A stretch of DNA of 64,000 nucleotides, taken from the NCBI RefSeq assembly GCF_020281205.1, contig NZ_JACXZC010000011.1, forward strand, positions 22,705 through 86,704, written 5' to 3'. The translations under genes and the position numbers were made by a program. Origin of the DNA: Empedobacter stercoris (lineage in GTDB: Bacteria; Bacteroidota; Bacteroidia; Flavobacteriales; Weeksellaceae). Shown here one piece after another: positions 22,481 to 33,237 of the stretch (position 1 is its first letter; each line of letters starts with the position of its first letter). The notes below the pieces were generated by a model. It saw nothing but the letters and a program-made list of their open reading frames with translations. It was not told where the DNA came from and did not search any database.

Positions 22481-22511
22481 TTGCTATTTAGATTAATTTA
22501 AAATAAATTTG
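22481..22511 (+). promoter_or_regulatory. Promoter of the TonB receptor operon, with palindromic spacer
   Basis: A -33 TTG (22481-22483), a 20-base spacer and the perfect -7 element TAAATTTG (22504-22511) precede the ATG at 22530. The spacer includes TTTAGATTAATTTAAA (22487-22502), an almost perfect palindrome (7 of 8 pairs) placed where a repressor would block RNA polymerase. Confidence 0.5.
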
Positions 22512-22529: not shown

Positions 22530-25229
22530 ATGAAAAAAGGTTTATTAGCGCTCTCTCTATTAGGAACATTCGGTTTTGTAAATGCTCAACGGATTTTATC
22601 GGGAACTGTAACAGATGAAAATGGAAACAATTTATCAAATGTTCAAGTTCAGGATCCGCAAACTAAAAGATGGACTCAAACAAATTCGAATGGTTTTTTT
22701 ACAATCCAATTATCGAATGAGAATACTAATTTATCTTTTTCGCAAAAAGGGAAAGAAACGCAAGAAATCATTGTTAATTCTGATGAAACTAATGTATCCA
22801 TCGTTCTTTATAATCAAACACTCCGATTAGAGCAAGTTGATATTTCACCTAAAAAGAAAAAAGAATATTCTGAAATTACACTTGGAAAAGAAGCAATCGA
22901 AAATGTACAGGCTTTTTCATTAAACGAGGTTTTGCAACAATTACCAGGACAAGTAACATTAGATTTTAACAACAATGAGTTTAAGAATATTGTATTTAGA
23001 ACAGCCAGTTCAAATAATAATTTAGGTTTATCTGGTAGCTCAAGTACGTCGACTATTAATGACAGAAAAGATTATTTTCAGAATAAAGCGTTTGGAACTT
23101 CCATCGTTGTCAATGATATTCCAGTTTCGAATAACGAAAATATGCAATCTTTTTCTTCAGTTTCTAATGGGAATTTCAACGATTTTAATAATCCAAGTTA
23201 TGGTGTAGATTTGCGCCAAATAACAACTGCAAATATTGATGAAGTTAAAATTATTCAAGGGATTGCTCCTGCCAAATATGGTGACTTAACATCAGGATTA
23301 ATTATCATCAATTCAAAAGTTGGGCAAGCTCCCCTACGCGCTTCGGTTTCGATGTTAGATGCAACAACTGAATATAATATTTCGAAGGGTTTCAAGATAA
23401 ATGACAGAAACTTCTTTAGTATATCAGGCAATTATTTGTCTTCTAATGCAGATGTGCGCGATAATTTGAAGTCATATAATCGTATATCGACTAGCGCTGC
23501 TTGGAAATCATCTAACAAAACAAATACATTGGTTAATACGTTAGATGGAAATTTTGCGATTAACACTGATAAAATAAAATATGATCCGGATAATGTTTCG
23601 GATCCTAAAATAAAAAATGATAAGTTCTCTATTCGATTATCAAATAATTTGAAATGGAATTTGAAAAAAGAATGGATTGATGCTTTAAATGTTGATGCAA
23701 ACATTAATTACGAAAAGCAAAATTCTAAAGAAGAACGTTGGGTAAATGTTGCAACTGCAGCTGTGACGACTTCTACTGTAAACGGTATTTCTGAAGCTAT
23801 CTTTTTACCTAATCAATATACGTTAGTCAAAAATGTAGAAGGAATTCCAATGTCTACTTTTCTGAATGTAGAAGGTGTGAAAAATTATGAATCTAAAAAC
23901 AAATGGAATCATACTTTTTCTGTTGGACTATCTTCCCGATCTAGTGAAAACAAAGGTCGTGGAACATATACAGACGAAAATTCAACACCTAATTTTTTCA
24001 CTTTAAGCGGTGCTAAAGGTAGTTTAGGTTACCGAGATTATAATTTCAAAAATACCAAAACGCAATGGCAATTATCTGTTTATGCAGAAGATAGAATTGT
24101 GAAATATGGAAACAATGACAATGTTTTCAAATTAGATTTAGGTTTTAGATACGACAACCAATATGGTTATAATTCGTATCAACCGCGTGTAAATACTTCA
24201 TACGCTTTCAATAAAGTGTTAAGAGTTCGTGGTGGATATGGAATTTCGTCTAAAGCACCTTCTTTAAATCAACTTTTTACAGGTGATCGTATTTATGATC
24301 GACTTTTAGGTGACGGAATATATTATATCAACAATAAACAATACGGTTGGATTGAAACATTCCTTTTAGAAGGAAATAATCTAAACTTAAAACCAAGTAA
24401 ATCCTATAATTCGGAAATTGGTTTTGATCTTAATTTACCTTTTGGATCGTTAAACGTTACGGGATATTACAATCAATTGAAAGATGGTATTTCGTCTTTT
24501 GCTCAAATTACAACTTTAGAAGGTTCTAAAATTGCGGTTGATACGTCCTCTTCTACTCCATCCTACTCTGTTGTTGGAAAGGAAGCTTATCAAATTGAAT
24601 ATTCAACTTTAGAAAATAATTTAGAATCTACAGATAAAGGAATCGAAATGTTTATGAATTTTAATCGCATTCGACCGCTTAATTTAGATATATCTGTAAA
24701 TGGATCTTATACAAAAACCACGAACAATAAACCTGTTTATACGTACGACGCTTCTACAAATGTTTTAGCAAAAGAGAAATATGGTGTGTATTATAATCCG
24801 AAATCAAACGATGAACAATTAATGTTTGGAACTAATTTTAATTATCATCTTAAAAATGTGGGATTAATTTTATCACTTCGAACAGAACATATATTTATTC
24901 AGAATCACGATAAATTCAACAATAGAAATCCAATAGGTTATTTGGATGGAAATTCTGTTTTTCATGAAATTCCAGTCGAAGACCAAGCAAATATAGATTT
25001 GTATGGGCATTTGATCAAAGCACCTCAAAAAACGTTAGGTGAATTACAAAAATCATTGCACAATTTCCATTTACGCATTTCGAAAGATTTCTTGAATGGA
25101 TTTAAAGTTTCGGTTTATACAACCAATGTTTTTGGTCTGAAACCTACTTATATCAACGATTCTGGAGAAAGAAGAGAATCTAATATTGCTAAATTTTCAT
25201 TAGGAGGTAAAATTGAGTACACGTTCTAA
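22530..25229 (+). CDS. TonB-dependent outer-membrane receptor
   Basis: An 899-residue receptor. Residues 1-20 are a signal peptide (ending GFVNAQ), about 21-95 a carboxypeptidase-regulatory-like beta-sandwich (RILSGTVTDENGNNLSNVQV), about 110-270 the plug (VPVSN/IIQGIAPAKYGDLTSGLIIINSK type sequence), and the rest a 22-strand-type barrel ending in an aromatic (EYTF). Receptors of this layout import large or scarce ligands with energy from TonB-ExbBD. There is no SusD partner; instead a lipoprotein, a second barrel and a cytochrome peroxidase follow in the same operon. I start at the ATG at 22530, since the in-frame TTG at 22509 lies within the -7 element. Ligand unknown; a metal or haem complex is one guess. 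Confidence 0.9.
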   Translation: MKKGLLALSLLGTFGFVNAQRILSGTVTDENGNNLSNVQVQDPQTKRWTQTNSNGFFTIQLSNENTNLSFSQKGKETQEIIVNSDETNVSIVLYNQTLRLEQVDISPKKKKEYSEITLGKEAIENVQAFSLNEVLQQLPGQVTLDFNNNEFKNIVFRTASSNNNLGLSGSSSTSTINDRKDYFQNKAFGTSIVVNDIPVSNNENMQSFSSVSNGNFNDFNNPSYGVDLRQITTANIDEVKIIQGIAPAKYGDLTSGLIIINSKVGQAPLRASVSMLDATTEYNISKGFKINDRNFFSISGNYLSSNADVRDNLKSYNRISTSAAWKSSNKTNTLVNTLDGNFAINTDKIKYDPDNVSDPKIKNDKFSIRLSNNLKWNLKKEWIDALNVDANINYEKQNSKEERWVNVATAAVTTSTVNGISEAIFLPNQYTLVKNVEGIPMSTFLNVEGVKNYESKNKWNHTFSVGLSSRSSENKGRGTYTDENSTPNFFTLSGAKGSLGYRDYNFKNTKTQWQLSVYAEDRIVKYGNNDNVFKLDLGFRYDNQYGYNSYQPRVNTSYAFNKVLRVRGGYGISSKAPSLNQLFTGDRIYDRLLGDGIYYINNKQYGWIETFLLEGNNLNLKPSKSYNSEIGFDLNLPFGSLNVTGYYNQLKDGISSFAQITTLEGSKIAVDTSSSTPSYSVVGKEAYQIEYSTLENNLESTDKGIEMFMNFNRIRPLNLDISVNGSYTKTTNNKPVYTYDASTNVLAKEKYGVYYNPKSNDEQLMFGTNFNYHLKNVGLILSLRTEHIFIQNHDKFNNRNPIGYLDGNSVFHEIPVEDQANIDLYGHLIKAPQKTLGELQKSLHNFHLRISKDFLNGFKVSVYTTNVFGLKPTYINDSGERRESNIAKFSLGGKIEYTF

Positions 25230-25254
25230 TTCTAAACCATTTAAAAAGATTATT

Positions 25255-26580
25255 ATGCTTAAAAAATTAATACTTTTCACTTCGTTTGTAATAACATTAT
25301 TATTCAATTCTTGTTCTGATGATGATTTTGGAGCAAATGCTGTTCAAACAATTAATTTTACAACGTATGTAAAATTTGATGCTGATTTTGATCATACCAA
25401 AAAACCTATTCATGCCAAAACAGTTCTGAAAAATACACAAACTGGCATTACGCATGAAGCTTTAACGAATGATAATGGTGAAGCTATTTTTCCTAATTTG
25501 ACACCAGGAATATATTCAGCAAATGTGAGTTTTTCTATTACTCCAGCTCAATTCGAGGATTTATTTGGTTATCCTACAGATTCAGAAGATAATGTTGAGT
25601 TTAGTGGTGCTGCACAAAATATTACCATTAACTCATCAAATGTATCTTTAGAAATCGAGTTAACTTCTACGAAAACAATTGGTGGATTAATCTTGAAACA
25701 AATTTATTACGGTGGTTCACACATCAAAGAAGGTGCAATGTTTAGAGATCAATTTATTGAGATTTATAACAATTCAAGTGAAGTTCTTTATGCAGATGGG
25801 TTAATATTTGGTCAATTATTTGGTGCTAATACGGTAGAAAATCAACCTTATTCTCAACCAAATGGTCAGTTAGATTGGTCGAAAGGTGAAGGAAATAAAG
25901 TAGGTGCAAGTGCAAATACCGATTTTGTGTATGTATCTCACGCTATTCGTATTCCTGGGGATGGTACAACTTATGCTGTTCAGCCAGGTGAAAGTATCAC
26001 AATTGCACAAACAGCAATCAATCACAAAGGAAATTATTATGATGCCAATGGTAAATTAATCGAGATTCTAAAACCAGAATTAACAGTCGATTTATCCAAT
26101 GCTGATTTTGAAGTGAATATGACAGAATATTTAGGCTCTCAATATTCGTATGATATTCAAAATCATGCTGTTCCTGATATGGATATTGTGTGGTGGGTTT
26201 CAGGTAGAGATTTAATTTTAGACAATTTAGGTCGTCAAGCATTTATCTTATTTAGAGCTTCTAACGAAGAAATTAATGGGTTTGGAAAGGTGAAAAATCC
26301 AAATAATAAGACTTCATACGAATATCTTCAATTACCGAATGAAAAGATTGTGGATGGCGTAGAAACCACTCAAGATATGGGAAGTAAATTGGTTCCGAAA
26401 AAATTACAAAATAAACAAGATGCAGGATATTCATATTTAACAGCAGGACCTTATTCATCAACATCTATTATTCGTAAAACACAGAAAACAATAAATGGTC
26501 GTATTATCTTGAAGGATACCAATAATTCTACAAACGATTTTGTGAATATTAAAGCTGAACCGAAAATTTTTGCGCAATAG
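25255..26580 (+). CDS. DUF4876-type lipoprotein with lamin-tail-like domain
   Basis: A 441-residue lipoprotein: residues 1-19 form a signal peptide with lipobox LFNSC, modified at C20 and followed by SDDD. About residues 35-125 look like a carboxypeptidase-regulatory-like sandwich (VLKNTQTGITHEALTNDNGEAIF). From about 140 the sequence GLILKQIYYGG, later FIEIYNNSSEVLYADGL, resembles a lamin-tail-type beta-sandwich; this fits DUF4876 as I recall it. A tandem Trp pair W313-W314 stands in DIVWWVSGRD. It is probably at the cell surface or in the periplasm next to the receptor. I use the ATG at 25255 because the start at 25213 would overlap the receptor gene and hide the signal peptide. Confidence 0.75.
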   Translation: MLKKLILFTSFVITLLFNSCSDDDFGANAVQTINFTTYVKFDADFDHTKKPIHAKTVLKNTQTGITHEALTNDNGEAIFPNLTPGIYSANVSFSITPAQFEDLFGYPTDSEDNVEFSGAAQNITINSSNVSLEIELTSTKTIGGLILKQIYYGGSHIKEGAMFRDQFIEIYNNSSEVLYADGLIFGQLFGANTVENQPYSQPNGQLDWSKGEGNKVGASANTDFVYVSHAIRIPGDGTTYAVQPGESITIAQTAINHKGNYYDANGKLIEILKPELTVDLSNADFEVNMTEYLGSQYSYDIQNHAVPDMDIVWWVSGRDLILDNLGRQAFILFRASNEEINGFGKVKNPNNKTSYEYLQLPNEKIVDGVETTQDMGSKLVPKKLQNKQDAGYSYLTAGPYSSTSIIRKTQKTINGRIILKDTNNSTNDFVNIKAEPKIFAQ

Positions 26581-26591
26581 AAATATAGAAC

Positions 26592-28190
26592 ATGAAATCA
26601 ATTGATTTAACAACATACGACAATAAATTTTTGAGAATCGCTTCTTTTACTTGTTTATTTTTTGCAAGTCAATTGTTCGCGCAAGAAAATGATTCGATAA
26701 AAGTGACTTCTAACGAAGCAGAGCAATTTATCAAAGATTTGAATTGGGAATTGCCTATTGCAACGCATTCTTTACCAATAAAAGATTATACACATACCGG
26801 AATTTATTTCAATCATAAAAACAATCAATTTACTCGTAAACAAACAGCAGAAGAAACAAATCGTTATGGTTTTCTAAGCGAAGGTTTATACACGACAGAA
26901 AATGGTTACAAAATTTTTGGAACGATAAACCTTGAAAAGTTTACAGAAAAAAATCTTAGTTGGAATCTTTCTGACGAACGTACAGATGAACAACAAGTAT
27001 TGTCGCCACAGTATTTTTACGTGCCACGTGCTGCTGATTGGGATAATCAGCGCTATTTGATTCGTGGAGGAGTTTCTAAAAATTTCGGAAAAATGACATT
27101 AGCTGCAAAAGCTGAATTAAATGTCAATAAAATGGCTCGTAAATTAGATCCTCGACCTGAAATTAAAAACAATCAATTAGTCGGTGAAATTCAGGCTACT
27201 TACGAAATTATGGACGGTCATCAACTTTTTGTTTTAGGAGCTTATGGGCGAAAAAACAAAGATTTTAGTATCGTTTATAAAAATAGAAATTTGGATGTTG
27301 AAGCTTATCCAGAAACCTATTTACGTTATATGGCAGGATATGGTCGTGTGATTAATAACCCGTTGAGAAATAAAATTGATAATGAAAAATCACTTTATCA
27401 ATATTTTACTCGAAATATTAGTTCAAAAATTGGTGGTGGTTATCAATTTAGTTCTGACAATACACGTCTGATTTTAGGTTATAATTACCAAGAAAATCAA
27501 CAACGTATGTATGATAGCAAAACGAAGGAAGATAAATTCTTTATTTACGTTTGGGATATCAATGAGCAATTTGTTTATGCCAATTTCATGACAACGTTTG
27601 ATAACAATACGATGAATGCTCGTTTAGATTTCTCGAGAAAAGATGGTGAAAATTATGATGTTTCAATTGGTGGAATGAACTATCAAAATCGTTTACAAAA
27701 TGCGAATTTAGATGTTAATTTGGCGAATCGTGATCAATTAAAAATGAATTATTTCATTGGTTTCAAATCAAGTTATAATCAAAATAAATATTACGATGCA
27801 TTAGCAATTTATACCATGAAAATTAAATCGTTGGATGTTGGTGTTTATGGGAATAAAGATGTTATGTTGAATAATAAATCAAAAATAAATATAGGTTTAG
27901 CTTTTAATTATTATGCGCTACTTGATTCCTATTTTGATTATACGAAAATGACAGGTATTAATGAAGATACATTTTATAACAATGTAGCCGCTTATGATTA
28001 TGCTTACAATACAACAGATCATCTTGATGCATCCACCTCTATACGCTTCATTTTACCGATTAAAAATAATAAGACAATCGAGCTATATACACAGTTAAAA
28101 GGTATATTTGCAACAAATAAAAGTAATTTTACCCGAATTAATACAGACAATACCTATTGGATGAACTTCGGAATTCAATTAAATTATTAA
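26592..28190 (+). CDS. DUF6850-type outer-membrane beta-barrel protein
   Basis: A 532-residue protein with a signal peptide whose hydrophobic core (SFTCLFFASQLFAQ) comes after an unusually long polar start of about 15 residues. The mature part is a series of alternating amphipathic strands ending in an aromatic residue (MNFGIQLNY), typical of outer-membrane barrels. The region YFYVPRAADWDNQRYLIRGGVSKNFG and its place after a DUF4876 gene fit DUF6850-type barrels as I remember them. No enzymatic motif is seen. It starts 11 bases after the lipoprotein gene and ends 1 base before the peroxidase gene, so the genes are tightly coupled. Confidence 0.7.
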   Translation: MKSIDLTTYDNKFLRIASFTCLFFASQLFAQENDSIKVTSNEAEQFIKDLNWELPIATHSLPIKDYTHTGIYFNHKNNQFTRKQTAEETNRYGFLSEGLYTTENGYKIFGTINLEKFTEKNLSWNLSDERTDEQQVLSPQYFYVPRAADWDNQRYLIRGGVSKNFGKMTLAAKAELNVNKMARKLDPRPEIKNNQLVGEIQATYEIMDGHQLFVLGAYGRKNKDFSIVYKNRNLDVEAYPETYLRYMAGYGRVINNPLRNKIDNEKSLYQYFTRNISSKIGGGYQFSSDNTRLILGYNYQENQQRMYDSKTKEDKFFIYVWDINEQFVYANFMTTFDNNTMNARLDFSRKDGENYDVSIGGMNYQNRLQNANLDVNLANRDQLKMNYFIGFKSSYNQNKYYDALAIYTMKIKSLDVGVYGNKDVMLNNKSKINIGLAFNYYALLDSYFDYTKMTGINEDTFYNNVAAYDYAYNTTDHLDASTSIRFILPIKNNKTIELYTQLKGIFATNKSNFTRINTDNTYWMNFGIQLNY

Positions 28191-28191
28191 A

Positions 28192-29343
28192 ATGATTATG
28201 AAAAAAATACTTCCATTATTTGCAATAGGAGCTACTACTCTATTTTATGCATTTAACAGTAATAAAATAATCGACCAAGGTTATACAATTACCGATTTAC
28301 GAGCATTGTATAGTAGTGGAGATCAGTCTAAATGGCCTACTCCAACTGTTGACGAAAGTGTTTTGAATGATGGATTTGAGGATATTGGAACATTAGGAGA
28401 AGTTCCTTTTCCCAAAGATAATCCATATACAAAAGAAAAAGCTGAATTAGGGAAAACGTTATTTTTTGATCCTCGTTTATCCAATTCTAATCAAATTTCT
28501 TGTGCAAATTGCCATGATCCTGAATTAAATTGGGGTGATGGTCGACGTGTTCCTTATGGAGAAGACCGTCAATTGGGTACACGTAATTCACCAAGTTTAA
28601 TGAATGTGGCTTACGCTAAAGTAATGTTCTGGGATGGCCGAGCAAAAACGTTGGAAGAACAAGCTGAATTCCCAATTCGTGATAAAAAAGAAATGAATCA
28701 TCACATCGATTTTGCAACAAAAAGAATTGCTCAAATTGCTGGTTACAAAGATTTGTTCAAACAAGCTTTTGGAGACGAAAACGTATCAAATGATCGCATA
28801 ACGAAAGCAATTGCTACTTTTGAACGAACAATTTTAGCTCCAAAAAATCGTTTTGATAAATTTATTGCTGGAAAATCAGATGAATTAACAGATCAAGAAA
28901 TCGAAGGTTTACATCTTTTCCGTACAAAAGCAAGATGTATCAACTGTCACAATTCGGCTTATTTTTCGGATAATAAATTCCATAATATTGGATTAACGTA
29001 TTATGGACGAGAATACGAGGATTTAGGTTTATACAATACAACTAAATTAGCAAAAAATGTTGGGGAATTTAAAACACCTTCATTACGCGAAGTTCCACAG
29101 AATGCACCTTATATGCACAACGGATTGTTTCCAACTATTCGTGGTGTCTTAAATATGTACAATGCTGGAATGTTTCACTTTCAACCAAATGAAAAACAGA
29201 AAAATGATTCATTATTTCCTAAAACATCTGATTTGGTGAAAAAACTTAATTTAACAACTTCCGAATTAGATGCATTAGAATCCTTTTTAATGAGTCTGAA
29301 ACAGAATCAATACAAAATGCGCCCACCGCATTTACCAAAATAA
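28192..29343 (+). CDS. Di-haem cytochrome c peroxidase / MauG family protein
   Basis: A 383-residue exported protein with an N-terminal hydrophobic segment (residues about 3-21) that may be a signal peptide or anchor. It has two c-type haem sites, C104-A-N-C-H108 and C249-I-N-C-H253, and the family blocks LFFDPRLSNSNQISC, MFWDGRAKTLEEQAEFPI and FKTPSLREVPQNAPYMHNG. Family members reduce hydrogen peroxide or, as in MauG and MbnH, use it to oxidise a partner protein. Its place as last gene of a TonB receptor/lipoprotein operon suggests that it acts on the ligand or on a partner protein. ATG at 28192; the ATG two codons later is equally possible. Confidence 0.9.
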   Translation: MIMKKILPLFAIGATTLFYAFNSNKIIDQGYTITDLRALYSSGDQSKWPTPTVDESVLNDGFEDIGTLGEVPFPKDNPYTKEKAELGKTLFFDPRLSNSNQISCANCHDPELNWGDGRRVPYGEDRQLGTRNSPSLMNVAYAKVMFWDGRAKTLEEQAEFPIRDKKEMNHHIDFATKRIAQIAGYKDLFKQAFGDENVSNDRITKAIATFERTILAPKNRFDKFIAGKSDELTDQEIEGLHLFRTKARCINCHNSAYFSDNKFHNIGLTYYGREYEDLGLYNTTKLAKNVGEFKTPSLREVPQNAPYMHNGLFPTIRGVLNMYNAGMFHFQPNEKQKNDSLFPKTSDLVKKLNLTTSELDALESFLMSLKQNQYKMRPPHLPK

Positions 29344-29346
29344 AAT

Positions 29347-29388
29347 TATATCAGAAAATGCCTCAATTTTGAGGCGTTTTTTGATATA
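29347..29388 (+). terminator. Terminator of the TonB receptor operon
   Basis: A core stem GCCTCAA (29360-29366) / TTGAGGC (29369-29375) is followed by GTTTTTT. Flanking TATATCA and TGATATA extend it to a longer imperfect hairpin. Confidence 0.85.
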
Positions 29389-29424
29389 ATTCGTTTATAT
29401 ATAAATCATTATTAAACTTTTAAG

Positions 29425-29823
29425 TTGAGAAAGCAATATCATTTTCGTCGAATCAATCAACAACTTTATATTTGGGATGTTGATCGGTTGATTAGCTTAA
29501 CACAAAATATTCTGCCAAAAAAAATTCCTTTAAGTGCTATCAGCGAATTAAACGAGCCTTATTGGTACAGCTATGAAGGAGATGTTCCTACATGTAAATC
29601 GATTGCCGAACATATGATTTTGGTGAATAATGCTGATCTTTCGTATCCTATTATTTTATGTCCAGAAGGTAAAATAATGGATGGCATGCATCGCGTCGTG
29701 AAAGCATATTTAAATGGTCATATTTCAATTCATGCTTATCAATTAAAAAAACTTCCTGAACCTGATTTTATAGATGCAGATCCGCAAGACTTACCTTATG
29801 AAGACGATAATCTTATTTTATAA
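29425..29823 (+). CDS. Stand-alone ParB/sulfiredoxin-fold protein
   Basis: A 132-residue protein with the ParB-like core motif in ILCPEGKIMDGMHRVVKAYL (around residues 77-96), where ParB proteins read GxxRxxA/DG-HR. It lacks the helix-turn-helix and C-terminal domains of chromosomal ParB, so it is a single nuclease/CTPase-fold domain of unknown function. The only usable start is the TTG at 29425, preceded by TAAACTTTTAAG. It lies between the TonB operon terminator and a copper ATPase gene and shows no link to either. Confidence 0.65.
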   Translation: MRKQYHFRRINQQLYIWDVDRLISLTQNILPKKIPLSAISELNEPYWYSYEGDVPTCKSIAEHMILVNNADLSYPIILCPEGKIMDGMHRVVKAYLNGHISIHAYQLKKLPEPDFIDADPQDLPYEDDNLIL

Positions 29824-29892
29824 ATTTATTCTACAATTGTATAACATAATTTCTTAAAAATTACTTGAAATTTGTAGTATAAAATAACTATT

Positions 29893-32295
29893 ATGAAAGT
29901 GCAAACCCTTATTATACCGCTTCTTAATTTAGAAACGCAAGAACAAGTTTCTAAATTGAACCAAATGATATCTGAAGTTGAAAATCTGGATAGTTTTTTT
30001 ATTGATTTATCAAATAAAAGTGTTTCGCTGACGGCAAAAAAAATGCCTAAAGTAGCAGCTAAAGTTTTTCAAATCCTAAAACAAAATAATTTCAAAATCG
30101 ATTCTGTCGAAAAAAATTACCCCGTACTTAACATGACTTGTGCTTCATGTGCAAGTAGCTCGCAGGCAAACTTAAAACGTCAACCAGGTGTTGTGAATGC
30201 TGAAGTGAATTATGGAAATGGAATGGGAAAAATAGAATATATTCCTTCTTTAACTTCTCCCGAAAATTTAAAAAATGCATTAGTTGAGGTTGGATTTGAT
30301 TTAGTGATTGATGAATCAAAAAATCAAGACGAAGAAATAGAACAACTTCATGAAGATAAATACCTATCACTAAAAAAGAACGTGATATGGGCGCTTGTTT
30401 TTGGTATTCCTTTGTTCATTATAGGAATGTTTTTTATGAATATGCCTTATGGTAATTATATCATGTGGGCGCTTTCTACTCCTATTCTCTTTATTTTCGG
30501 TCAACAATTTTTTGTTGGTGCGTGGAAACAATTGAAAAATAAGACAGCTAATATGGATACTTTAGTGGCATTAAGTACTGGTGTAGCTTATATATTCAGT
30601 GTTTTCAATACATTATTTCCAGAATATTGGCACAGCAAAGGTTTACACGCTCATCCTTATTTTGAAGCAGCTGGTTTGATTATCGTTTTTATTTTGATTG
30701 GTAAATTGATGGAAGAACGTGCGAAGGGAAATACATCTGAAGCAATCAAAAAATTAATAGGTCTGCAACCCAATACGGTTTCTGTTTTAAAAAATGGAAA
30801 TCAAGTTGAAGTAAAAATTGAAGATGTGCAAATTGGAGACTTGATTTTATCTAAACCTGGAGATAAAATTGCCGTTGATGGAATAATTATTTCTGGAGAT
30901 ACTTTTATCGATGAAAGTTCTTTAACTGGTGAACCTCTTCCTGTCGAAAAAGGAGTTGATGCTACTGTTTTTTCAGGAACGTTGAACCAAAATTCTCCTA
31001 TTCAATATAAAGCCTTAAAAGTTGGTAATGATACACTCTTAGCTCAAATCATTCAGTCTGTGAAGAATGCACAAGGTAGCAAGGCGCCAGTTCAACAATT
31101 GGTGGATAAAATAGCAGGAATTTTTGTTCCGATTGTAATTATCATAGCAATTTTAACTTTTATTACATGGTTAGTTTTAGGTCAAGAAAATGCGTTTACC
31201 ATGGCACTTTTATCCATGATAACTGTATTGGTTATCGCTTGTCCTTGCGCACTTGGTTTGGCTACACCTACTGCAATTATGGTTGGAATGGGAAAAGGAG
31301 CTGAACAAGGAATTTTAATTAAAAATGCTGAAAGTTTAGAATTAGCAAAGAAAATTGATACGATTATCTTAGATAAAACAGGAACAATTACAGAAGGAAA
31401 ACCTAAAGTACAAGAATTAATTTGGTTTGATGATTCTGCTAAAAATATACTTTATACCATCGAAAATAATTCGCAACATCCCTTAGCCAAAGCTATTATT
31501 GCACATATTGGTAAACAAGAAAATTTATCGGATTTGAAAGTTGAAGATGTTTCTGGAAAAGGATTAAAAGCAACTCGTTTGAACAAAGAATATTATGTTG
31601 GGAAAATAAGTTGGATGAACGAATTGAACATTCAAATTGAGGAGAATGTTAAACAAACAATTCAAGATTTTTCAACTAAAAATTATACCACTTCTTTCTT
31701 TGGTGATAATGAAAAAGTTTTAGGTTTGATTGGAATTTCAGATGAAATAAAAGCAACTTCTATTGAAGCTATAAAAGCATTTCATGAAAAAGGAATTGAG
31801 GTTTGGATGGTGACTGGTGACAATGAATTTTCTGCGAATGCAATTGCTAAACAAATTGGAATTGAACAAGTTGTATCGAATGCTTTACCTCATGATAAAA
31901 TGAATATCATCAAAAATTTACAAAATAAAGGAAAAATTGTTGCGATGGTTGGTGATGGAATTAATGACAGTGCAGCTTTGGCACAAGCAGATGTTTCGAT
32001 TGCGATGGGAAATGGTTCTGATATTGCAATTGATGTTGCCGAAGTAACGTTAATCGGTGGCGATTTAACAAAAATTAATCATGCGATTAATCTTTCAACA
32101 CAAACAGTCAAGACTATTCATCAAAATTTATTCTGGGCATTTATTTATAATGTAATCGGTATTCCAATTGCGGCAGGTGTTCTTTATCCAATCAACGGAT
32201 TTTTATTAGACCCAATGATTGCAGGAGCTGCAATGGCTATGAGCAGTGTAAGTGTTGTAACAAACAGTTTATTACTGAAATATAAAAAGATTTAA
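29893..32295 (+). CDS. copA: Copper-translocating P1B-type ATPase
   Basis: An 800-residue heavy-metal ATPase. Residues about 1-72 look like a degenerate HMA fold with no Cys pair; residues about 77-145 are a second HMA domain with M81-T-C83-A-S-C86. Eight membrane helices follow, with the transport motif C450-P-C452, phosphorylation site D494 in DKTGT, the TGEP actuator motif, HPLAKAI and GDGINDS. CPC with a C-terminal MSxSSV-like helix (AMAMSSVSVVTNSLLLK) indicates Cu(I) export from the cytoplasm. No chaperone or regulator gene sits beside it. A GAAATTTG -7-like box lies upstream. Confidence 0.9.
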   Translation: MKVQTLIIPLLNLETQEQVSKLNQMISEVENLDSFFIDLSNKSVSLTAKKMPKVAAKVFQILKQNNFKIDSVEKNYPVLNMTCASCASSSQANLKRQPGVVNAEVNYGNGMGKIEYIPSLTSPENLKNALVEVGFDLVIDESKNQDEEIEQLHEDKYLSLKKNVIWALVFGIPLFIIGMFFMNMPYGNYIMWALSTPILFIFGQQFFVGAWKQLKNKTANMDTLVALSTGVAYIFSVFNTLFPEYWHSKGLHAHPYFEAAGLIIVFILIGKLMEERAKGNTSEAIKKLIGLQPNTVSVLKNGNQVEVKIEDVQIGDLILSKPGDKIAVDGIIISGDTFIDESSLTGEPLPVEKGVDATVFSGTLNQNSPIQYKALKVGNDTLLAQIIQSVKNAQGSKAPVQQLVDKIAGIFVPIVIIIAILTFITWLVLGQENAFTMALLSMITVLVIACPCALGLATPTAIMVGMGKGAEQGILIKNAESLELAKKIDTIILDKTGTITEGKPKVQELIWFDDSAKNILYTIENNSQHPLAKAIIAHIGKQENLSDLKVEDVSGKGLKATRLNKEYYVGKISWMNELNIQIEENVKQTIQDFSTKNYTTSFFGDNEKVLGLIGISDEIKATSIEAIKAFHEKGIEVWMVTGDNEFSANAIAKQIGIEQVVSNALPHDKMNIIKNLQNKGKIVAMVGDGINDSAALAQADVSIAMGNGSDIAIDVAEVTLIGGDLTKINHAINLSTQTVKTIHQNLFWAFIYNVIGIPIAAGVLYPINGFLLDPMIAGAAMAMSSVSVVTNSLLLKYKKI

Positions 32296-32347: not shown

Positions 32348-32800
32348 TTATAATAAACGATCATCCCAATTGTAATCTTCTATTTCTTTGATTTTTACTT
32401 TCGAAGAAAAATCGGGATGTTTTGTATTAATTAAATAATTGTATTCTTTCGGAATGATTGACGAAGGAACTTTCATCACCAAATATTTAAAATCTTGATA
32501 CCAAGCAGATCCAATTTCTTGTAGTTTCGGATAAGACTCTACAGATTGCCAATTTTTGGGTAATTTAGAATCCTTTACATTGTAAATTTCATCTTCTGTA
32601 CAATCAATTTCAATTACCAATAATTTATACGAATTGTCAATCGTAATTGAACTGCGGTGAACCACTAATTCTAAGGTTGATAATGCGCGTGTACTTCCCG
32701 AATAAATTACAAATTCATCATTTTTGTTCCATCTGTTGGCAACACCAGAAGCTTGTAATGATTTTGCATATTTAGCTTTACGTATATTGTAAACTAACAT
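32348..32800 (-). CDS. RES-domain toxin (NAD+ phosphorylase type)
   Basis: A 150-residue RES-domain protein. The conserved residues of the family are visible as the Arg in GVANRWN, the Tyr and Ser in FVIYSGSTRALSTLELVVH, and the downstream SAWYQDF. RES toxins degrade NAD+ in the cell when free of antitoxin. The gene begins 2 bases after the stop of the gene at 32803-33237, the usual antitoxin-toxin order, so the pair forms a type II toxin-antitoxin operon. All expected catalytic residues appear to be present. Confidence 0.88.
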   Translation of the reverse strand: MLVYNIRKAKYAKSLQASGVANRWNKNDEFVIYSGSTRALSTLELVVHRSSITIDNSYKLLVIEIDCTEDEIYNVKDSKLPKNWQSVESYPKLQEIGSAWYQDFKYLVMKVPSSIIPKEYNYLINTKHPDFSSKVKIKEIEDYNWDDRLL

Positions 32801-32802
32801 TC

Positions 32803-33237
32803 TTAAACGTTTTCTCCGTACTCAATAGCCGTTAAACGATTGTCAATGAATTTTAAACCAGATACTGTATCCAAGAAATCCATTGGTGCTTTTTTATCCA
32901 ATAAAACGTTTGGAGTTGTTAACCATTTTTCGAAATCATCTTTTGTGTTAAAAACCTCTAAACCATGTTTATACAAAGAAATTAAAAGAACAACATGCTC
33001 TTTCGTATTGTCTTTTAATGAAACGTCTTTTGTTTTATAATTTCTATATGTACGCGTTGTAATATTTAACCAATTCGAAATAATATCATCTTTTAAACCA
33101 GATAATTCGTCTAGATATTTGATGTATTTTTGATCGATATTATAACTATTTACATAGAAATAGACATTAGTGAAATCTCTTACTTCAGGAATTTCATCAA
33201 TGATTTGCTTGTAACTTTTTAGTTTTATTGTTGCCAT
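32803..33237 (-). CDS. Xre/MbcA/ParS-type antitoxin
   Basis: A 144-residue protein with an N-terminal helical region, a Xre-like helix-turn-helix (SGLKDDIISNWLNITTRTYRNYK) and a C-terminal toxin-binding region ending DTVSGLKFIDNRLTAIEYGENV, the MbcA/ParS/Xre signature. It would bind and inhibit the RES toxin encoded 2 bases downstream and repress the operon. A TATCTTTA -7-like element (33254-33261, minus strand) and a small inverted repeat just upstream could be the autoregulated promoter. Confidence 0.88.
   Translation of the reverse strand: MATIKLKSYKQIIDEIPEVRDFTNVYFYVNSYNIDQKYIKYLDELSGLKDDIISNWLNITTRTYRNYKTKDVSLKDNTKEHVVLLISLYKHGLEVFNTKDDFEKWLTTPNVLLDKKAPMDFLDTVSGLKFIDNRLTAIEYGENV

What the first reader, a model, noticed from the sequence alone, without database searches (positions are those of the whole stretch)
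22530..29343. Four-gene TonB receptor - DUF4876 lipoprotein - DUF6850 barrel - di-haem peroxidase operon of unknown function
Seen: four tightly packed genes (gaps of 25, 11 and 1 bases) between one good promoter and one terminator. They encode an importer, a lipoprotein with a lamin-tail-like fold, a second outer-membrane barrel and a CCP/MauG-type enzyme with two intact CxxCH sites. Known: TonB receptors import scarce ligands, and CCP/MauG enzymes use peroxide or high-valent haem for oxidation. Inferred: an uptake system that oxidises its ligand, or a protein partner, after import. I know of no experimental function for the DUF4876/DUF6850 pair.
Basis: partly seen in the sequence, partly recalled or inferred. 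Interest (0 to 1): 0.7.

Follow-up and report, generated by a model that had tools for sequence, protein, structure and literature searches.

The report
Iron-starvation uptake operon with haem enzyme
Four tightly packed genes in an Empedobacter-type bacterium stand behind a DNA site that matches the published Fur (iron-switch) site of a related genus, and they are predicted to build a cell-surface system that imports iron, in which a two-haem enzyme would likely oxidise the imported cargo.

Summary
The operon is conserved: in 81 loci compared, receptor-DUF4876-DUF6850 stand in that order in 78, and the di-haem enzyme follows in 44 (38 of 43 in the window's family, 6 of 38 outside it). The new result is the control site. 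The promoter spacer (22484-22506) holds an inverted repeat that matches the published Riemerella Fur box; 37 of 41 family operons have it within 4 mismatches, against 13 of 384 control genes. The same motif precedes feoA, siderophore receptors and other iron genes in these genomes. Published transcriptomes show DUF4876/receptor loci of P. gingivalis and B. thetaiotaomicron strongly induced by iron depletion. So this is most likely a Fur-repressed, surface-lipoprotein-assisted iron importer of the Xus type, with an extra barrel. The enzyme has a tyrosine where classical peroxidases have methionine as haem ligand, as in MauG and MbnH; it is an accessory of some lineages. What it oxidises is not shown: the imported iron carrier is my first choice, a partner protein the main rival. 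Copper is disfavoured. New variant of a known kind.

The parts
22481..22511 (+). Bacteroidota-type promoter: -33 TTG (22481-22483), 20-base spacer, -7 TAAATTTG (22504-22511)
   Evidence: sequence; consensus of this promoter type recalled
22484..22506 (.). predicted Fur box CTATTTAGATTAATTTAAAATAA filling the promoter spacer
   Evidence: 1 mismatch to the family motif, best hit of the whole genome; 3 mismatches to the published Riemerella Fur box
22530..25229 (+). TonB-dependent receptor, 899 aa, with N-terminal carboxypeptidase-regulatory-like domain; not SusC type
25255..26580 (+). DUF4876 lipoprotein, 441 aa; N-terminal transthyretin-like domain, C-terminal part as BT_1938; conserved His257 and acidic residues
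25312..25326 (+). lipoprotein Cys20 followed by SDDD, resembling a surface-export signal
   Evidence: sequence; invariance of Cys20; export-signal rule recalled
26592..28190 (+). DUF6850 outer-membrane barrel, 532 aa, 18 strands in the AF2 model (pLDDT 75)
28192..29343 (+). di-haem CCP/MauG-family enzyme, 383 aa, with N-terminal signal or anchor sequence and no lipobox
28501..28515 (+). first haem site CANCH (residues 104-108)
   Evidence: 42 of 42 homologues
28936..28950 (+). second haem site CINCH (residues 249-253)
   Evidence: 42 of 42 homologues
29158..29160 (+). Tyr323, at the place of the axial Tyr294 of MauG and of the tyrosine of MbnH
   Evidence: alignment; 42 of 42
29344..29391 (+). 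intrinsic-terminator-like hairpin, 20 pairs

Best explanation
The four genes are packed as one operon behind a Fur-box-like site, and they likely make an iron-importing system in which a surface lipoprotein would capture an iron-carrying compound, the TonB receptor would pull it through the outer membrane, and a periplasmic MauG-type di-haem enzyme would then oxidise the imported compound so that its iron is freed. Shown here by calls: gene order and its conservation, the site in the promoter spacer and its match to a published Fur box, the same motif before known iron-uptake genes, the Tyr ligand position and the intact catalytic residues of the enzyme. Shown by others: iron-depletion induction of DUF4876/receptor loci in Bacteroidales, and Fur binding to promoter fragments with such boxes in Riemerella. 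Inferred: that the four genes are co-transcribed, that iron represses them through Fur, that DUF4876 binds the ligand at the surface, that the DUF6850 barrel helps passage or capture, and that the enzyme acts on the ligand. The three-gene core occurs without the enzyme, also in genomes where no CCP/MauG gene was found at all, so the enzyme is an add-on, probably of oxygen-respiring lineages.
For: Order conserved in 78 of 81 loci, median gaps 21, 6 and 3.5 bases. Published Fur box of Riemerella (PMC5609570; four promoters taken to gel shift) lies within 4 mismatches in 37 of 41 family operons, against 13 of 384 other genes of the same loci; five shuffled palindromes gave 0 to 3 of 41 operons and 6 to 14 of 384 controls. 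The family motif exceeds its reversed control in 8 of 8 genomes (from 19:1 to 26:16; palindromic sites can count on both strands) and precedes FeoA/FeoB, siderophore-type receptors, a PepSY reductase, a siderophore-interacting protein and a Peripla_BP_2 binding protein. In the own genome 4 of the 6 sites with at most 2 mismatches are intergenic and all 4 precede TonB receptors (one at 291 bases); a 3-mismatch site lies 13 bases before feoA. Three FUR-family genes are in the genome. PG1019-22 rose 20.8 to 214.5-fold and BT3625-33 36.7 to 128-fold on iron depletion (PMC10434189). XusAB shows that a TonB receptor with a surface lipoprotein can import ferric siderophores (PMC13142918, abstract). 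Trp147, Glu167 and Tyr323 kept in 42 of 42, Gln157 and Pro161 in 41 of 42.
Against: No expression, binding or ligand data for this operon or its close kin. The motif was first found in these same upstream regions; the test with the published box is independent, but the cut-off of 4 mismatches was chosen after seeing the data. The published box is a prediction supported by gel shifts of fragments, and another Riemerella paper uses the classical GATAATGATAATCATTATC box (PMC7976709). In the own genome the motif is only weakly above its control (26 against 16). The motif was within 3 mismatches in only 2 of 12 operons of the class outside the family and in 0 of 24 of other classes. The enzyme is not beside 37 of 81 operons; of 13 genomes with such an operon that were searched for CCP/MauG genes, 9 have a same-clade enzyme elsewhere and 4 (G162, G238, G230, G394) do not. 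Nothing shows what the enzyme oxidises; a haem-costly enzyme in iron starvation is odd. The tyrosine ligand is not operon-specific: 33 of 40 CCP/MauG sequences that were not entered as operon ones have it, nine of them members of the operon clade.
Confidence: 0.55

Rival explanations
1. Same iron importer, but the di-haem enzyme matures a protein partner (receptor, lipoprotein or barrel) by oxidising aromatic residues, as MauG does for methylamine dehydrogenase and as is proposed for CorB/SACCP with CorA/MopE.
For: Tyr at the MauG Tyr294 position; the gene beside its would-be partners; CorA/CorB and MopE/SACCP precedent (PMC3912023, passages). Two barrel tyrosines follow the enzyme: Tyr155 in 41 of 41 and Tyr364 in 39 of 41 barrels with an adjacent enzyme, 5 of 5 and 4 of 5 with a same-clade enzyme elsewhere, 8 of 29 and 6 of 29 in the rest, which were not all searched for an enzyme elsewhere.
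Against: No tryptophan of the lipoprotein is shared by all enzyme-bearing operons. By the usual topology rule the two barrel tyrosines lie in the extracellular half, away from a periplasmic enzyme, and their pattern is confounded with descent. The partners exist without the enzyme.
Confidence: 0.25
2. Same iron importer, but the enzyme only protects it: it removes peroxide where iron enters, or oxidises ferrous iron in the periplasm as EfeB does (EfeB recalled).
For: CCP family; catalytic residues intact; closest solved sequences are peroxidases.
Against: Tyr in place of the Met ligand, and the loop residue at the place of the distal His (place recalled) is His, Asn or Glu (21, 11 and 10 of 42), unlike reductively activated peroxidases; a separate clade from the other paralogues.
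Confidence: 0.13
3. A copper-uptake operon of the CorA/CorB or MbnP/MbnH kind.
For: MbnH-like enzyme (TIGR04039, 232.3 bits, below its cut-off of 362.85); a CopA-type ATPase gene lies downstream at 29893.
Against: Fur box; iron-starvation induction of the core in Bacteroidales; the ATPase gene lies downstream on the same strand in 8 of 81 loci, all of the window's genus (one further locus has a homologue upstream on the other strand), and beyond the terminator; no MbnP or CorA match among the genes scanned.
Confidence: 0.05

Closest known systems
XusABC xenosiderophore uptake of Bacteroides (PMC13142918; abstract and passages seen)
   Different: lipoprotein is DUF4876, not the DUF4374 propeller; extra DUF6850 barrel; di-haem enzyme instead of a PepSY reductase
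PG1019-PG1022, BT1938-39 and BT3625-33 iron-depletion loci (PMC10434189; passages seen)
   Same: receptor and DUF4876 protein; L080 has the gene order published for BT3633-3625 as far as the names allow
   Different: no di-haem enzyme is named; BT3625-33 carries PepSY, ABC transporter and DUF4857 genes
MauG
   Same: di-haem family, Tyr at the second haem, Trp/Gln/Pro/Glu constellation (roles recalled)
   Different: no methylamine dehydrogenase gene beside it; 239 bits against an equivalog cut-off of 443.85
MbnH/MbnP and CorB/CorA, SACCP/MopE (PMC3621798, PMC3912023; passages seen)
   Same: di-haem enzyme next to a surface or periplasmic partner, near metal uptake
   Different: metal there is copper where known; partner family differs; no shared Trp in the partner
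Bacterial cytochrome c peroxidase (1iqc, 3hq8)
   Same: overall sequence, E 2.3e-49
   Different: Tyr for Met at the second haem; distal His not kept
Fur regulon of Riemerella anatipestifer (PMC5609570; section 18 and passages seen)
   Same: Fur box sequence
   Different: no DUF4876 operon is named in what I saw

Membership tests
Fur-regulated iron-uptake operons | Fur box at the promoter | tested here: met
   3 mismatches to the published 19-bp box, inside the promoter spacer; family-wide 37 of 41 within 4
Fur-regulated iron-uptake operons | derepression without iron or Fur | not testable with these tools
   only published iron-depletion data for Bacteroidales relatives
XusABC | TonB receptor with adjacent surface lipoprotein | tested here: met
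   surface location predicted from CSDDD only
XusABC | DUF4374 beta-propeller lipoprotein | tested here: not met
   DUF4876 by Pfam and by fold
XusABC | PepSY inner-membrane protein in the operon | tested here: not met
   none of the four genes; single-sequence search found PepSY in 0 of 44 loci with the enzyme, 2 of 37 without
SusC/SusD | SusC-type receptor | tested here: not met
   29.3 bits against cut-off 368.25
classical bacterial cytochrome c peroxidase | Met as axial ligand of the second haem | tested here: not met
   Tyr323 at that place, 42 of 42
MauG | axial Tyr294 | tested here: met
   alignment (residue role recalled)
MauG | curated model score; mau genes beside it | tested here: not met
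   239 of 443.85 bits; neighbours
MbnH | curated model score; MbnP partner | tested here: not met
   232.3 of 362.85 bits; no MbnP among the six window genes scanned
MbnH / CorB | oxidises Trp of its partner to kynurenine | not testable with these tools
   no Trp common to all enzyme-linked DUF4876 proteins

The most novel reading that the evidence does not exclude
Oxygen-respiring Bacteroidota free iron from imported carriers by oxidation: a Fur-controlled MauG-type enzyme destroys the iron carrier in the periplasm, where anaerobic relatives use PepSY reductases or ABC proteins beside the same receptor, lipoprotein and barrel.
Probability: 0.25. Interest if true: 0.85.

Novelty: new variant of a known kind. 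Interest (0 to 1): 0.62.

Why it matters
DUF4876 and DUF6850 are unassigned families that travel together across Bacteroidota: 35 of the 37 sampled genomes with DUF4876 also match DUF6850. Tying them to the Fur regulon turns 'unknown function' into a testable iron-uptake module. If the enzyme processes the cargo, it would be an oxidative route of iron release in the periplasm, next to the known reduction and hydrolysis of siderophores.

Tried and rejected
Copper reading: followed through CorA/CorB, MbnP/MbnH and the downstream CopA gene; weakened by the Fur box and by the copA synteny being limited to the genus. Kynurenine in DUF4876: no tryptophan shared by both DUF4876 types with the enzyme. 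The first gene caller missed or cut genes (e.g. the enzyme in L146), so the counts and the presence counts were replaced by a six-frame count; only the gap lengths are used. A first motif guess gave 4 sites, three of them not before iron genes by eye; the broader motif gave the regulon. De novo motif search scored above mononucleotide shuffles (646 against 503 to 521, 15 seeds) but gave a low-complexity consensus. Fold comparison of the barrel gave only generic barrels: porin, FadL and TonB-receptor matches tell no ligand. PepSY-versus-enzyme swap: too few loci (2 of 37 against 0 of 44) to claim; DUF4857 and ABC permease 6 of 37 against 0 of 44, from single-sequence searches. Named-genome search with one sequence found only 4 loci. 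On print: the term searches (listings, and passages of some hits) showed 3 papers naming DUF4876, none naming DUF6850, and I saw no passage linking DUF4876 to a di-haem enzyme or a ligand; bioRxiv and most subscription journals are not held.
Full report
What is there. The four genes are as reported: receptor 22530-25229, lipoprotein 25255-26580, barrel 26592-28190, di-haem enzyme 28192-29343, with gaps of 25, 11 and 1 bases and Pfam matches over the cut-offs. A 20-pair terminator-like hairpin follows (29344-29391). The sigma-70 promoter scan shows no excess (59 against 54.2), but a Bacteroidota-type -33/-7 promoter ends 18 bases before the first ATG.

Conservation. DUF4876 occurs in 37 of 395 genomes drawn from the phylum and in 62 of 197 of the family; DUF6850 matches 47 of 395, 37 of them over its cut-off; 35 of the 37 DUF4876 genomes are among the 47. 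I fetched 80 neighbourhoods and, with the window, scored 81 in six frames with models built here. Forty-three of the 81 are of the window's family; one search lists 78 family places by my count, so about half were looked at. Receptor, lipoprotein and barrel follow one another in 78 of 81; the three others are L113, L121 and L128. The enzyme follows in 44 of 81: 38 of 43 in the family, 6 of 38 outside it. Gaps are short (medians 21, 6 and 3.5 bases; 67 of 76, 68 of 74 and 39 of 40 at most 50, made with the earlier gene caller). So three genes are the core and the enzyme is an add-on.

Control site. Upstream regions share an AT-rich inverted repeat. With the pattern TTATTTAGAWTAAWTTWAAATAA and up to 3 mismatches, 8 of 8 genomes have more matches than the reversed pattern gives (both strands summed, so a palindromic site can count twice: G095 19 against 1, G277 22 against 4, G546 29 against 6, G462 37 against 8, G503 37 against 9, G485 41 against 15, G413 22 against 11, own 26 against 16). 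The 30 sites for which loci were given (the best 3 or 4 of each genome) were opened: they lie before FeoA/FeoB, siderophore-type TonB receptors, a PepSY reductase, a siderophore-interacting protein, a Peripla_BP_2 binding protein and the operon itself; 5 of the 30 lie inside predicted frames by the script, one of these (L185) an over-extended frame that holds feoA by eye, and several precede genes that I did not annotate. In the own genome the best site of all (1 mismatch) is that of this operon; of the 6 sites with at most 2 mismatches 4 are intergenic, all before TonB receptors (one at 291 bases), and 2 are inside genes; a 3-mismatch site lies 13 bases before feoA. Among operons, 37 of 41 in the family have the motif within 3 mismatches, 0 of 41 the reversed pattern, and 13 of 384 other genes of the same loci have it. 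Four of the 81 loci were not scored: L091 and L123 (upstream or receptor start missing) and L083 and L128 (no receptor placed before the strongest DUF4876). In other groups it was 2 of 12 (same class) and 0 of 24 (other classes).

That motif was learned from these regions, so I tested a published one. PMC5609570 (section 18 read) gives the Riemerella anatipestifer Fur box ATTTAGAATTATTCTAAAT, predicted from Fur-regulated promoters, four of which were taken to gel shifts with purified Fur. It lies within 4 mismatches upstream of 37 of 41 family operons (18 with 2, 15 with 3, 4 with 4; the other four with 5) against 13 of 384 controls; five shuffled palindromes gave 0 to 3 of 41 and 6 to 14 of 384. 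The window's site has 3 mismatches and fills the promoter spacer, as a repressor site would. Three FUR-family proteins are encoded in the genome. Another paper on the same species uses the classical Fur box instead (PMC7976709, passages).

Published expression. PMC10434189 (passages): on iron depletion PG1019-22 (DUF4876, receptor, hypothetical proteins) rose 20.8 to 214.5-fold, BT3625-33 36.7 to 128-fold, BT1933-39 3.5 to 7.4-fold; a Prevotella intermedia counterpart stands in a figure legend of up-regulated loci. PMC10470040 (one passage) lists a P. gingivalis DUF4876 gene at -5.42 beside HmuY at -6.11, which I read as lower in excess hemin. PMC10101095 lists PG_1019/1020 as changed in a mutant study, not used here. 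These cover the core, not the enzyme.

The enzyme. It is closest in sequence to cytochrome c peroxidases (1iqc, E 2.3e-49), but its C-terminal part is closest to MbnH (6e1c) and MauG. Tyr323 aligns with residue 294 of the MauG chain, known (recalled) as an axial haem ligand; peroxidase 3hq8 has Met at that place. In 42 operon homologues: both CxxCH, Trp114, Trp147, Glu167 and Tyr323 42 of 42; Gln157 and Pro161 41 of 42; the place of the distal His varies (His 21, Asn 11, Glu 10). A tree of 65 sequences was made from 53 CCP/MauG places of 22 genomes searched (two short fragments left out) and 12 operon enzymes, some of them entered twice; the smallest clade that holds the 25 entered as operon enzymes has 34 members and local support 0.957 (FastTree, midpoint root). 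Of the nine others in it two are by position operon enzymes too (L277, and L279 by its place) and seven stand elsewhere: in G398, G443, G002, G485, G359, G253 and G324. Clade members have Trp114; the other sequences printed have Phe, Tyr or Gly there. I searched 13 genomes that have an operon without the enzyme beside it: six have a free-standing same-clade enzyme (G398, G443, G002, G485, G359, G253), three have one only beside another operon copy (G396, G507, G223), and four have none (G162 with other CCP/MauG genes; G238, G230, G394 with no match to the family). For five of the six free-standing ones the neighbourhood was fetched: one (G002) has a site 4 mismatches from the motif before it, the other four have none within 5, and one of these (G398) is followed by a DUF4920 gene, a family that lies in 6 of 44 enzyme-bearing operon loci. 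The tyrosine itself is common: 33 Tyr, 4 Phe, 2 Met, 1 Leu in the 40 sequences not entered as operon ones, so it marks the enzyme type, not the operon.

Mechanism. The parts resemble Xus iron piracy, where a surface lipoprotein hands ferric siderophores to a TonB receptor (PMC13142918; abstract and passages). I think this operon does the same for an unknown iron carrier, and that the enzyme acts on the imported cargo in the periplasm. The alternatives, partner oxidation as in MauG and CorA/MopE (PMC3912023; PMC3621798; passages) and peroxide or Fe(II) oxidation, are open. Two barrel tyrosines (155, 364) follow the presence of the enzyme, but descent explains this as well, and by the usual topology rule they lie in the outer half of the barrel, so they speak for a different ligand rather than for an enzyme target.

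Verdict. Iron uptake is the well-supported part: the first three readings share it and together hold about 0.93. The enzyme's substrate is not settled: cargo 0.55, partner 0.25, protection 0.13.

Noticed in passing
window 32348-33237 (-): RES-domain protein (PF08808) behind an Xre/MbcA/ParS-type antitoxin (PF09722): a RES-Xre toxin-antitoxin pair, syntenic in 6 loci of the genus, the window included.
   Followed up: partly
window 29425-32292 (+): A 132-aa protein without Pfam match that looks ParB-like by eye, then a CopA-type P-type ATPase with one HMA domain.
   Followed up: partly
G000:C10:600-1082: A second, partial DUF6850 match (profile 299-464, 171-aa frame) near a contig end in the same genome; only one DUF4876 gene was found in the genome.
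   Followed up: no
P0128: A 434-aa database protein that joins part of DUF6850 to CCP_MauG by its Pfam domains; it may be a fusion or a sequencing frameshift across the 1-base gap.
   Followed up: no
L254 1870-9453: In a genome of the same order (G324) a same-clade di-haem enzyme ends a SusC-like/SusD-like/lipoprotein operon with no DUF4876 (names by eye).
   Followed up: no
L124, L127, L129, L133, L145, L159, L249: A DUF4920 protein (VC-x-KKGCW motif in L124) lies near the di-haem enzyme.
   Followed up: partly
G000:C6:23114-23175 and C34:2899-2961: Tandem Fur-box-like sites about 40 bases apart before two further TonB receptors of the own genome.
   Followed up: partly
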